DNA of 25,394 nt from a virus: positions 1 to 25,394 of the IMG/VR virus record IMGVR_UViG_3300042563_000035; one strand, written 5' to 3'. The notes under the pieces are model-generated. The model searched no databases. It was not told the DNA's origin and saw only the letters and a program-made list of their open reading frames with translations. Positions 19,842-25,137 of this stretch are shown here, piece after piece. The first letter of the stretch is position 1; each line of letters begins with the position of its first letter. The position numbers were made by a program, and so were the translations under genes.

Positions 19842-20270
19842 ATGACATGGTATTACCAAGATACACCCGTAAATGAATTACCCGAAGATTGTGTTGGTTT
19901 TGTTTATTTAATAACCAATACTGTAACTGGACGGAAGTACATAGGTAAAAAATTAGCTAAATTCTCTAAAACAACTTATAAAGTAGTAAAACTTAAAAAC
20001 GGTAACAAAAAACGCAAAAAGATTCGAAGCAAAATTGATTCGGATTGGCAACAATATCATGGCTCAAGTACTGAATTAACTGAAGACATCAACCAACAAG
20101 GCCCAGACAAATTTAAACGCGAAATACTTTACTATTGCAAAAGCAAGGCAGAATGTAGTTATATTGAAGCCCGCGAGCAGTTTAGTCGTAGAGTATTAGA
20201 ATCAGATGATTATTACAACGGACAGATCAGTGTCCGTGTCCATGGCTCTCACATCAAAAACAAAATCTAG
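19842..20270 (+). CDS. Small GIY-YIG nuclease-like protein
   Basis: The protein has 142 residues. GFVYLITN (19-26) and KYIGKK (32-37) form the GIY-YIG core, with the two motifs nine residues apart as in the family. A basic loop (KNGNKKRKKIRSK, 52-64) follows, then SDWQQYHGSS and a helix with the probable catalytic Glu (YIEAREQF, 107-114), and YYNGQISVR at the end. Free-standing GIY-YIG proteins of this compact type are common in T4-like phages. Some act as homing endonucleases, others may have nuclease roles in phage DNA metabolism. It lacks NUMOD DNA-binding modules, so homing is not shown. It lies 12 bases after the radical SAM gene and is the last gene before a 509-base gene-free stretch. 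Confidence 0.75.
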   Translation: MTWYYQDTPVNELPEDCVGFVYLITNTVTGRKYIGKKLAKFSKTTYKVVKLKNGNKKRKKIRSKIDSDWQQYHGSSTELTEDINQQGPDKFKREILYYCKSKAECSYIEAREQFSRRVLESDDYYNGQISVRVHGSHIKNKI

Positions 20271-20779: not shown

Positions 20780-20998
20780 TTAAAAGAATGGCATCCCAGA
20801 CTTTTCAGCAGTTTCCAAATTACTTTCTATAATCTTATTGATAATACGCCTATCATCATATGATAACATCACTGCATCTTCGTATGAAATGCTACCGCGC
20901 ATATACCAGCACATAGTTAAGAGGTCTTTCTTTAAGGCTTTTGATTCTTTGTCGAAGTTGTCGAGCATTTCGACAATGTCCTCATTGGATGATGTCAA
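20780..20998 (-). CDS. 51: Small gp51-like baseplate hub assembly protein, possibly expressed by frameshift from gp26
   Basis: The frame gives 72 residues from a TTG at 20998. In T4, gp51 is needed for hub assembly but is not part of the virion. The conserved-looking end CWYMRGSISYEDAVMLSYDD, then NKIIESNLETAEKSGMPFF, matches short gp51-type proteins that follow gp26 in cyanophages and relatives, from memory. No ATG is present at the start of the frame. The TTG has AAGG only three bases upstream, and an internal ATG (20968) with GAGGA ten bases upstream would give 62 residues. The frame is -1 relative to gp26 and open back through the gp26 stop to a slippery site, so a gp26-gp51 fusion of 357 residues is possible. 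Late expression with gp26 is expected. Confidence 0.65.
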   Translation of the reverse strand: MTSSNEDIVEMLDNFDKESKALKKDLLTMCWYMRGSISYEDAVMLSYDDRRIINKIIESNLETAEKSGMPFF

Positions 20999-21003
20999 AA
21001 GCC

Positions 21004-21852
21004 TTAGACGAAAAAATTTGTTTGTTCAAACATAAACGGAGCAGTGAAGTCTTGATTACATTCAGGATTTTCGCAGGTTAACTCTACTAGATTATGTTCG
21101 CTATTTTGTTTGTTAATTATTTCTAATCGATCTTTAATTAGATCCCAAAGTTTTCTATCACAGTTATTTAGAAATTCTGTAATATAATCAACTCTTGTTA
21201 CCACTGTGCCGTCGTCCATTTTAATGCCAGCAATACTTTTAGTAACTTGCTTTATTCCGGATATAATTAGTTTTTGAAACATTTCGTCAAATTTCTTAAC
21301 TTTTTCTTCTTCGGAAATTTCTTGATCTTGCACTAATTGTAAAATACGCTGTTCTTCGTATACATTAACATTATTTTTATTATAGTCTTCGTATGATTGT
21401 GGCTTTAGCATTATTTCTAAACCATTGAATAAAACTGTTTGGCTCCAGTCTGACGGATTAATTTTATCTAGTATGAATGATAAATCGATTGCTTTTTCAT
21501 TTTCTGTACCGCAATGGGGACACTTGCTTTTAAAATCTAATTGTTTACCGTAAGATGCAATTCTAATAGCTATTAAGATAGCATCCAAATCTACAGTTGG
21601 TACTTGCCAAGCGTTTTTAATGGCAGGACAGCAACTTTCTATTACGTGAGCAGTACTAGCACCGTTTAATAATGCGTCAGGTGTTTTCATTGTAAGCTCA
21701 TCTTTTGCAGTCATTGGGTAAATTGGAATCTCCCCAGTAACTGGCAAATCAATCGAACCTTCGGCATACCACCGTCCTTCGCTTGGCAATTTAATATAAA
21801 TTGCAGGTTGTCTAAAATGTTTAGTTAACGGATTGCCGGTTAATACACTCAT
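21004..21852 (-). CDS. 26: Baseplate hub/assembly protein gp26-like
   Basis: The protein has 282 residues (T4 gp26: 208) and belongs to the T4 baseplate protein family that includes gp26. The start GNPLTKHFRQPAIYIKLPSE (6-25), then GEIPIYPMTAKDELTMKTPD (40-59), LLNGASTAHVIESCCPAIKN (61-80) and DLDAILIAIRIASYGKQL (88-105), is the characteristic N-terminal half. CPHC (Cys111, Cys114) and CENPEC (Cys260, Cys265) could together hold a zinc ion, which is inference. GGAG lies seven bases before the ATG. The last codons contain the heptamer A_AAT_TTT. The gene stands divergently to the tape measure gene, and its layout (first protein, overlapping second frame, tape measure nearby) recalls tail assembly chaperones G and GT. 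Confidence 0.87.
   Translation of the reverse strand: MSVLTGNPLTKHFRQPAIYIKLPSEGRWYAEGSIDLPVTGEIPIYPMTAKDELTMKTPDALLNGASTAHVIESCCPAIKNAWQVPTVDLDAILIAIRIASYGKQLDFKSKCPHCGTENEKAIDLSFILDKINPSDWSQTVLFNGLEIMLKPQSYEDYNKNNVNVYEEQRILQLVQDQEISEEEKVKKFDEMFQKLIISGIKQVTKSIAGIKMDDGTVVTRVDYITEFLNNCDRKLWDLIKDRLEIINKQNSEHNLVELTCENPECNQDFTAPFMFEQTNFFV
21010..21019 (-). other. Probable -1 ribosomal frameshift site between gp26 and gp51
   Basis: At the 3' end of gp26 the minus strand reads ACA AAT TTT TTC GTC TAA. A_AAT_TTT (21019-21013) fits the X_XXY_YYZ slippery rule, and T_TTT_TTC (21016-21010) overlaps it as a second possibility. After a -1 slip the frame is open through F-R-L-R-L into gp51, with no stop, giving 280+5+72 = 357 residues. 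I did not identify a stimulatory structure downstream. Confidence 0.55.
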
Positions 21853-21914: not shown

Positions 21915-24551
<2,637 letters not shown>

Positions 24552-24582: not shown

Positions 24583-25137
24583 ATGGCCGGTTGTAATTAT
24601 TACGTGTATCAATACCTTACAGAAAATGGATTACCATATTATGTCGGTAAAGGAAAAAATAACAGAATCAATGTTAATCACAAACACATTGCATTACCTA
24701 CGGTTGAACGTAGAGTTATTGTTAAAGATGGACTTACTAACAAAGAAGCATACGAAATGGAATCGGAATTAATTAAATTCTATGGTTGTAAAAAACACGG
24801 TGGTATATTGGATAATAAAAAGATAACCAGATGGGTAGCAGAACCAGGATGGAAACATTCCGACGATTCTAAGAAAAAAATTAGTGCAGGTAATAAAGGT
24901 AAAGTGCGGTCCGAAGAAGCAAAAGCAAAATATCGCACACCTAAAACAGCAGAACACGCCGAAAAAATTAGACAAGCAAATCTAGGAAGACCGTATGATC
25001 CGATTAGGGCAGCAAAAATATCAGCTACCCTTAAAGGTAATATACCGTGGAATAAAGGTGTAAAAGGTACTCCTTGGACAGAAGCAAGAAGAAATGCTTA
25101 CTTACAAAGTAAAGCATTAAAAGGATTTTCATCATGA
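24583..25137 (+). CDS. Free-standing GIY-YIG homing endonuclease with NUMOD3 repeats
   Basis: The protein has 184 residues. YVYQYLTENGLPYYVGKGKN (7-26) is the GIY-YIG core, with the basic residue Arg28 after it and a probable catalytic Glu in EAYEMESELIKFYG (about 55-68). The rest is made of NUMOD3-type DNA-binding repeats: HSDDSKKKISAGNKGK, KTAEHAEKIRQANLGRP and IRAAKISATLKGNIPWNKG. This is the make-up of T4 Seg-like and I-TevI-like homing endonucleases that spread into neighbouring genomes lacking them. It stands between the tape measure and portal genes. Its stop overlaps the portal ATG (ATGA), and its last codons contain the AAGGA ribosome site of the portal gene. It starts 31 bases after the tape measure stop and is not interrupted. 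Confidence 0.9.
   Translation: MAGCNYYVYQYLTENGLPYYVGKGKNNRINVNHKHIALPTVERRVIVKDGLTNKEAYEMESELIKFYGCKKHGGILDNKKITRWVAEPGWKHSDDSKKKISAGNKGKVRSEEAKAKYRTPKTAEHAEKIRQANLGRPYDPIRAAKISATLKGNIPWNKGVKGTPWTEARRNAYLQSKALKGFSS

What the first reader, a model, noticed from the sequence alone, without database searches (positions are those of the whole stretch)
20780..21852. Likely -1 programmed frameshift fusing gp26 to gp51
The gp26 frame ends with a canonical slippery heptamer A_AAT_TTT (21019-21013), overlapping a second T_TTT_TTC. The -1 frame is open with no stop into the gp51-like frame, which starts with TTG and has no ATG at its head. The set-up mirrors the G/GT tail-chaperone frameshift of lambda and many other tailed phages (established), and a tape measure gene lies next door. 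I do not know of a frameshift described for T4 gp26/gp51. This would make gp26-gp51 a hidden functional analogue of G/GT.
Basis: partly seen in the sequence, partly recalled or inferred. Interest (0 to 1): 0.72.

Follow-up and report, generated by a model that had tools for sequence, protein, structure and literature searches.

The report
Tail-chaperone frameshift in T4-like jumbo phages
A phage gene ends in a slippery stretch that very probably makes some ribosomes shift one base back and add a 76-residue tail to the protein, giving the short and long tail-building helpers that many phages make; it is real and well conserved, but a known kind of system.

Summary
On the minus strand a PF12322 (gp26-type) gene, 21852-21004, ends ACA AAT TTT TTC GTC TAA, and the -1 frame stays open to 20780. 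Comparison strongly supports a -1 programmed ribosomal frameshift. T_TTT_TTC is in phase in 72 of 72 junctions of a first set, including 8 named jumbo phages, and 78 of 78 readable of a second; 125 of these 150 are distinct. The -1 frame encodes a 70-77-residue extension wherever the contig reaches its end. In 36 clusters the two Phe codons of the site are the only codon-invariant ones among 32 conserved columns. The window has a 12-bp stem 3 nt downstream; stems covary in two metagenomic clades but are absent above controls in RaK2-like phages. Correction: the conserved heptamer is T_TTT_TTC; A_AAT_TTT occurs in 101 of 150. It is not a new kind: tail assembly chaperones of T4-like phages, with poly-T -1 signals, are reported by Vladimirov et al. 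2022 (not held; cited in PMC10885494 and PMC12846349; that it names gp26/gp51 is recalled). T4 carries two separate PF12322 genes. Products and function are inferred, not measured.

The parts
21004..21852 (-). TAC-N (gp26-type short tail assembly chaperone, 282 aa), ATG start with a GGAG Shine-Dalgarno-like motif
   Evidence: PF12322 E 2.5e-16; phrog_150 E 2e-19; start context printed; AlphaFold2 mean pLDDT 86.2
21010..21016 (-). slippery heptamer T_TTT_TTC
   Evidence: in phase in 72 of 72 and 78 of 78 readable junctions; both Phe codons invariant in 36 of 36 clusters
   Evidence: present in 101 of 150 junctions
21004..21006 (-). 0-frame stop TAA of TAC-N, 3 nt after the heptamer
20780..21010 (-). 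TAC-C: 76 codons read in the -1 frame after the slip (RLRLLTSSNEDIVEM...SGMPFF) plus stop TAA
   Evidence: homologous extension in relatives; helical model, mean pLDDT 89.5
20780..21852 (-). TAC-NC: predicted frameshift fusion, 281 + 76 = 357 residues, junction ...TNFF-RLRLL
   Evidence: inferred; product not measured
20995..21006 (-). 5' arm of the downstream stem, TAAGGCTTTTGA, 3 nt after the heptamer
   Evidence: 12 perfect base pairs; z -4.38, 0 of 200 shuffles as stable; covariation in the clade
20933..20944 (-). 3' arm of the downstream stem, TCAAAAGCCTTA (loop 50 nt, which folds an inner hairpin)
21915..24551 (+). candidate tape measure gene (878 aa), divergent from TAC-N
   Evidence: position; RaK2's divergent neighbour is annotated as similar to a tape measure protein; no convincing family hit for this ORF

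Best explanation
[quoted passage not shown] Most ribosomes stop at TAA 21006-21004 and make the short form, TAC-N. A minority slip back one base on T_TTT_TTC (21016-21010), helped by an RNA stem starting 3 nt downstream, and read 76 more codons to make the long form, TAC-NC. By analogy with lambda gpG/gpGT, many TAC-N and few TAC-NC molecules would coat the tape measure protein, and the C-terminal part would recruit tail tube protein. Shown here: the site, its phase, the open and homologous -1 frame, codon-level constraint, and covariation of stems in two clades. Inferred: that slippage occurs, its rate, and the chaperone function.
For: T_TTT_TTC in phase in 72 of 72 junctions, 54 distinct over 140 nt, including Atu_ph07, Phosso, SCTP-2, RaK2, 121Q, Cassandra, XaC1 and GAP32, and in 78 of 78 readable of 80 loci; one contig is in both sets, and 125 of the 150 junctions are distinct over 92 nt. 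Among 32 amino-acid-conserved columns of TAC-N in 36 clusters, only TTT and TTC of the site are codon-invariant. The extension usually starts RxRLL or RxRIL, before the first possible start codon of the window's frame, and L052, L055 and Cassandra have no ATG/GTG/TTG in it. Window stem: 12 bp, z -4.38. Clade stems: 86.8% of cells paired versus at most 57.4% slid, and 84.7% versus at most 49.2%; cells with changes on both sides exceed all 500 shuffles in both. S-PM2, P-SSM2 and KVP40 have T_TTT_TTC, and HTVC008M and phiM12 T_TTT_TTT, at the same place with a -1 extension; T4 instead has two PF12322 genes and no T-run heptamer at the end of gene 26, and the C-terminus of gp51 aligns with those extensions. 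Copies of PF12322: one each in S-PM2, P-SSM2, KVP40, phiM12, HTVC008M, RM378, Atu_ph07 and RaK2, two in T4; one each in 5 of 6 more jumbo records.
Against: No product was measured. The stem is not universal: where the search was confined to stems starting 3-8 nt after the heptamer, it ranks in the top 2% of gene-body controls in 32 of 54 distinct junctions and not in the other 22, among them the four RaK2-like phages (L075, L076, L078, L079), SCTP-2, L016, L058 and L062. The stem registers tested were chosen from the same sequences; two of the five measures in each (pairs with both-side change, further pair types) do not stand out from the shuffles; both arms also encode conserved residues. 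The window-type TAC-C profile matches the cyanophage/T4 extension profile only weakly (hhalign probability 37%). RM378 has its open second frame in +1, not -1. Other slippery-type heptamers occur further upstream in some genes, e.g. TTTAAAG 103 nt before the stop of T4 gene 26. The candidate tape measure gene is divergent and unproven.
Confidence: 0.92

Rival explanations
1. The second frame is a separate small gene (72 aa) started at TTG 20998 by termination-reinitiation, with no frameshift.
For: TTG at 20998 lies 5 nt after the gp26 stop; six of the eight named records annotate a separate downstream CDS in this frame or part of it: Atu_ph07, Phosso, SCTP-2, 121Q, XaC1, GAP32.
Against: No ATG, GTG or TTG at all in the extension of L052, L055 and Cassandra; in 16 of the 72 the first such codon is at codon 15 or later; conserved residues RxRLL lie upstream of the TTG; the only Shine-Dalgarno-like motif, AAGG, sits 3 nt before the TTG, which is too close (sequence); the TTG is inside the stem; codon freezing of the heptamer is not explained.
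Confidence: 0.03
2. RNA polymerase slippage on the T run makes mRNAs with one base changed, so the frame change is transcriptional.
For: A run of six T; seven or more in HTVC008M and phiM12.
Against: Six T is short for slippage (recalled); the run is followed by an invariant C, and in two clades by a stem; the codon phase is constant.
Confidence: 0.03
3. The slip occurs on A_AAT_TTT, as the first reader put first.
For: Present in the window and in 101 of 150 junctions.
Against: Absent in 49 of 150, where the codon before is AGT, CAT, GAT, CGT or ACT or the base before AAT is not A, while T_TTT_TTC is in all 150. In L003 and L023 a -1-frame TAA overlaps the would-be A_AAT site.
Confidence: 0.03
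4. A sequencing or assembly error, or a decayed gene, mimics a frameshift.
For: Single-base indels in T runs are common errors (recalled); L002 and L066 do carry breaks inside TAC-N.
Against: The same -1 relation in 150 junctions, 8 of them in named phage records, with the extension conserved as protein.
Confidence: 0.01

Closest known systems
T4-superfamily tail assembly chaperones (Vladimirov, Gautam and Davidson 2022, Virology 566:9-15; assignment of T4 gp26 = TAC-N and gp51 = TAC-NC recalled)
   Same: Same PF12322 family; same short/long pair logic; TAC-N genes of T4-like phages with poly-T -1 signals are cited from that work in PMC12846349.
   Different: T4 itself has two separate PF12322 genes, whereas this group has one gene with a slip site. 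The paper is not held, so whether it lists this group or the RaK2-like phages is unknown to me.
Lambda gpG/gpGT
   Same: Short chaperone plus -1 frameshift extension near the 3' end; neither in the mature virion (PMC5009743, passages).
   Different: No sequence relation tested or shown; lambda uses another slippery site and lies upstream of its tape measure gene in the same direction (both recalled); here the candidate tape measure gene is divergent.
Pakpunavirus/Vandenendeviridae TAC frameshift (PMC12846349, section 3.8.3 read)
   Same: Myovirus TAC-N with an invariant poly-T motif and a -1 extension, found by the same comparative argument.
   Different: Other phage families; motif GTTTTT; no stem mentioned in the section read.
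HK97 tail assembly chaperone (2ob9)
   Same: Listed among weak structural matches, aligned to residues 1-106 of TAC-N (Z 5.9, rmsd 6.7, 89 aligned; Foldseek E 4.1).
   Different: The match is within the background of unrelated rows; not evidence of membership.

Membership tests
T4-like TAC-N (PF12322 / phrog_150) | Sequence match to the family | tested here: met
   60.5 bits against a 24.5-bit cut-off; 71.1 bits to phrog_150
TAC gene pair expressed by -1 programmed frameshifting | Slippery heptamer in the 0-frame phase near the 3' end of TAC-N | tested here: met
   72 of 72 and 78 of 78 readable
TAC gene pair expressed by -1 programmed frameshifting | Conserved -1 extension that need not have its own start | tested here: met
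   70-77 residues where not cut by a contig end (4 of 150 are cut); no ATG/GTG/TTG in L052, L055 and Cassandra
TAC gene pair expressed by -1 programmed frameshifting | Stimulatory structure downstream (common, not obligatory) | tested here: met
   window z -4.38; two clades covary; 22 of 54 distinct junctions not in the top 2% of controls, RaK2-like phages among them; stimulation itself not tested
TAC gene pair expressed by -1 programmed frameshifting | Both products made in infected cells | not testable with these tools
   needs proteomics or reporters
Lambda G/GT-type chaperone | Lies just upstream of the tape measure gene | tested here: inconclusive
   an 878-aa candidate is adjacent but divergent, without a convincing family hit
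Lambda G/GT-type chaperone | N part binds tape measure protein, C part binds tail tube protein; absent from virions | not testable with these tools
   biochemistry needed
T4 gp51 (TAC-NC) | C-terminal part homologous to the C-terminal part of T4 gp51 | tested here: inconclusive
   profile comparison over 33 columns, probability 37%, E 3.5e-4; a shared [ST]Yx..[ML]..[ED]R-like pattern by eye only
T4-style two-gene TAC system | A second, in-frame fused PF12322 gene in the genome | tested here: inconclusive
   one copy in the window record, which has 25,394 bases and may be a fragment; one copy in Atu_ph07 and RaK2 and in 5 of 6 further jumbo records, SCTP-2 having none at E 1 or better
HK97-type TAC fold | Structural match to 2ob9 | tested here: inconclusive
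   Foldseek E 4.1; Z 5.9 with rmsd 6.7, inside the background

The most novel reading that the evidence does not exclude
The T_TTT_TT[CT] frameshift is the ancestral way of making the two tail chaperones across the T4 superfamily. T4 (and, with the same layout, Campylobacter phage CP220) replaced it by gene duplication and in-frame fusion. Among jumbo relatives the stimulatory RNA has been rebuilt repeatedly around a frozen slip site: a long stem closing a loop of about 40-55 nt in the window's clade and in Atu_ph07/Phosso, a short hairpin with an 8-nt loop in the second clade, and nothing clear in RaK2-like phages.
Probability: 0.5. Interest if true: 0.45.

Novelty: new member of a known kind. 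Interest (0 to 1): 0.3.

Why it matters
It points to a long chaperone product that is missing from phage annotations: of the eight named records viewed, none shows a joined frameshift CDS, RaK2 and Cassandra carry no CDS for the extension, and the other six carry a separate small CDS for all or part of it. It also gives 150 aligned junctions (125 distinct) of slip site, spacer and stem that can be used to test how the short/long chaperone ratio is set in large contractile-tailed phages.

Tried and rejected
A_AAT_TTT as the operative site: rejected, 101 of 150 only. Bare heptamer frequency as evidence: rejected, at chance in the window. Separate initiation of the second frame as the general mode: rejected because some members lack any common start codon. 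Structural proof of a TAC fold: inconclusive; a sequence-profile search of solved structures gave one row, a CRISPR Csm2 protein at E 0.67. The viral structure library returned, among the 49 matches at E 0.001 or better, proteins annotated as baseplate hub or baseplate proteins of other phages. The extension model had 49 matches up to E 10, one of them below E 0.001, to an uncharacterised phage protein. Paper searches, judged by their listings: gp26 + gp51 + frameshift (8 papers), programmed frameshift + tail assembly chaperone + T4-like (4), ribosomal frameshift + jumbo phage + baseplate hub (0), frameshift + tail assembly chaperone + jumbo (0), Vladimirov + chaperone terms (8), gp26 + gp51 + tail assembly chaperone (6), TAC-NC + frameshift (1), RaK2 + frameshift + baseplate (1), slippery sequence + chaperone terms (2). 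None of the listings is a report on this group; the library lacks most subscription journals. The codon-usage product (10^-37.6) is not used as a probability: the TTC codon is also constrained by the Arg codon of the -1 frame and the clusters are not independent.

Rows dropped: of 71 loci, L067-L071 were not given to (their contigs end inside the gene). L053 had no stop. L002 and L066 were left out of the 72 because their TAC-N frame is broken or holds N, though both show TTTTTTCG at the junction. Of 80 loci, L161 and L168 end before the junction. L098 and L001 are the same contig, and the window's junction equals theirs. Four extensions are cut by a contig end (L034, L143, L163, L165). For one search, 64 of the 70 distinct window-clade sequences were used (those read as 76-codon extensions); for, 46 of 46. 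The clade split is by TAC-N similarity; its labels 'fresh' and 'marine' are mine and unverified.

Full report
What is there. The window is a 25,394-base virus record. On its minus strand, ORF 21852-21004 (282 aa) matches PF12322 T4_baseplate (E 2.5e-16) and phrog_150 baseplate hub (E 2e-19). It ends GAA CAA ACA AAT TTT TTC GTC TAA. The -1 frame is open from 21025 to its stop at 20782-20780. The first common start codon in that frame is TTG 20998. The heptamers themselves are not over-represented in this window, so the question is whether selection keeps this one.

Comparison. A scan of viral contigs with the protein gave 71 relatives. Readable junctions of 63 of these, the window and 8 named phages were examined: 72 of 72 have T_TTT_TTC in phase with TAC-N, and 54 of the junctions are distinct over 140 nt. 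The named phages are Atu_ph07, Phosso, SCTP-2, RaK2, 121Q, Cassandra, XaC1 and GAP32. In these eight the 0-frame stop follows 3 to 33 nt after the heptamer, but the heptamer and the start of the extension (FF-R, or FF-Q in Cassandra) stay. One contig is in both sets; over both sets 125 junctions are distinct over 92 nt. The -1 extension is 70-77 residues wherever it is not cut by a contig end (4 of 150 are cut). A_AAT_TTT is present in 101 of the 150 junctions, so it is not the conserved site.

Codon-level constraint. In 36 clusters at 80% TAC-N identity, 32 alignment columns have a residue conserved in at least 90% (Met and Trp not counted). Only two of them use a single codon throughout: TTT (36 of 36) and TTC (36 of 36) of the slip site. 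The other conserved Phe columns mix TTT and TTC (24 and 10, 25 and 10, 25 and 9, 31 and 2). The second Phe codon of the site is also constrained by the Arg codon of the overlapping -1 frame, so the first is the cleaner evidence; TTT is 81% of Phe codons here, so the codon before (always NNT) and the joint pattern matter as well.

No independent start needed. The extension begins R-x-R-[IL]-L in most members directly at the slip. L052, L055 and Cassandra have no ATG, GTG or TTG anywhere in it, and in 16 of the 72 the first such codon is at position 15 or later. In the second set every extension holds at least two such codons.

RNA structure. In the window TAAGGCTTTTGA (21006-20995) pairs with TCAAAAGCCTTA (20944-20933), 12 bp starting 3 nt after the heptamer. 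The 88-nt stretch folds at -26.5 kcal/mol, z -4.38, with 0 of 200 shuffles as stable. In the window's clade (64 of 70 distinct sequences, ungapped) 86.8% of cells are paired against 25.0-57.4% when slid by 1-3 columns; 35 cells change on both sides against 8.5 in shuffles (0 of 500 as high); but pairs with a both-side change (42 of 500) and pair types (142 of 500) do not stand out. A second clade (46 sequences, 44 distinct) has a different, short hairpin (12 bp, 8-nt loop), 84.7% paired against 31.6-49.2% slid, 34 cells with both-side change against 17.0 (0 of 500); again pairs (177 of 500) and types (400 of 500) do not stand out. Both registers were chosen from these same sequences. Atu_ph07 and Phosso have 10-bp stems with 48- and 51-nt loops and partly different sequences. 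In one search, which looked only for stems starting 3-8 nt after the heptamer, 32 of 54 distinct junctions reach the top 2% of gene-body controls; RaK2, 121Q, XaC1, GAP32 and SCTP-2 do not.

The wider T4 superfamily. PF12322 occurs once in S-PM2, P-SSM2, KVP40, phiM12, HTVC008M, RM378, Atu_ph07 and RaK2 and twice in T4; once in 5 of 6 other jumbo records, SCTP-2 having no match at E 1 or better although its TAC-N is found by tblastn. S-PM2, P-SSM2 and KVP40 end that gene with T_TTT_TTC, and HTVC008M and phiM12 with T_TTT_TTT, each with a -1 extension. T4 gene 26 has no such T-run heptamer at its end (a TTTAAAG lies 103 nt before its stop), and gp51 carries in frame a C-terminal stretch that aligns with those extensions. 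RM378 has an open second frame in +1. The window-type extension and the cyanophage/T4 extension compare weakly as profiles (probability 37%, E 3.5e-4), so that homology is likely but not settled.

Mechanism. Shown by sequence: a frozen slip site, a conserved -1 extension that some members cannot start on their own, and stems just downstream in two clades. Inferred: ribosomes slip by -1 at T_TTT_TTC, giving 282-aa TAC-N and 357-aa TAC-NC, which act as lambda gpG/gpGT do. A review describes gpG and gpGT binding the tape measure protein and the T part binding the major tail subunit, and says such frameshifting is widely conserved 'except T4' (PMC5009743, passages). AlphaFold2 models are confident for both parts (mean pLDDT 86.2; 89.5, helical), but structural comparison gives only a weak match to the HK97 tail assembly chaperone.

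What is known. PMC10885494 (passages) cites Vladimirov, Gautam and Davidson 2022 for T4-like phages that carry one short chaperone gene and one longer fused gene instead of frameshifting. PMC12846349 (section 3.8.3 read) cites it for poly-T -1 signals in TAC-N genes of T4-like phages. From recall of its abstract, the paper assigns T4 genes 26 and 51 to TAC-N and TAC-NC and proposes frameshifting in several T4-like groups; the paper itself is not held. The finding is therefore a new, well-documented member of a known kind. Its added value is the exact slip site, the clade-specific stems, and extension reading frames left unannotated or annotated as separate small genes in the named jumbo phage records viewed.

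Noticed in passing
L096 (Rhodothermus phage RM378): Its PF12322 gene ends TCC TTT TTT TGG AAT AAG TTA TGA and the open second frame (67 codons past the stop) is +1 (or -2), not -1: a possible different type of shift.
   Followed up: partly
L182, L183 (Campylobacter phage CP220): Two separate phrog_150-type open frames, 228 and 244 codons, the longer ending ...YPFEREIFISLINDEVEEQNKALKK like the TAC-C of cyanophages: a T4-style two-gene arrangement.
   Followed up: partly
L181 (Bacillus phage SP-15): The phrog_150-type gene ends GAA TTT TTT CAC GCC CGA TTC GAC GAC TAA with an overlapping long open frame (107 codons) downstream.
   Followed up: no
structure library rows: Proteins of about 500-550 aa in Erwinia phage Special G and Ralstonia phages RP12 and RSF1 resemble the TAC-N model, and small proteins with close accession numbers in Special G, Leptospira phage LE4 and ctshb19 appear (weakly, E 5-10) for the TAC-C model: possible unrecognised chaperone pairs. 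A phrog_150 search of Special G found nothing.
   Followed up: partly
L002 around 860-930: A near-perfect fold-back duplication interrupts TAC-N shortly before the junction in this contig, probably an assembly artefact.
   Followed up: no
window 21915-24551 (+): 878-aa ORF with a hydrophobic stretch and a C-terminal part that looks like a peptidase (by eye, motif recalled, no convincing family hit): candidate tape measure protein, divergent from its chaperone gene.
   Followed up: partly
window 19842-20270 (+) and 24583-25137 (+): Two ORFs that look like GIY-YIG endonucleases (motif recalled, not searched), on either side of the chaperone/tape-measure region.
   Followed up: no
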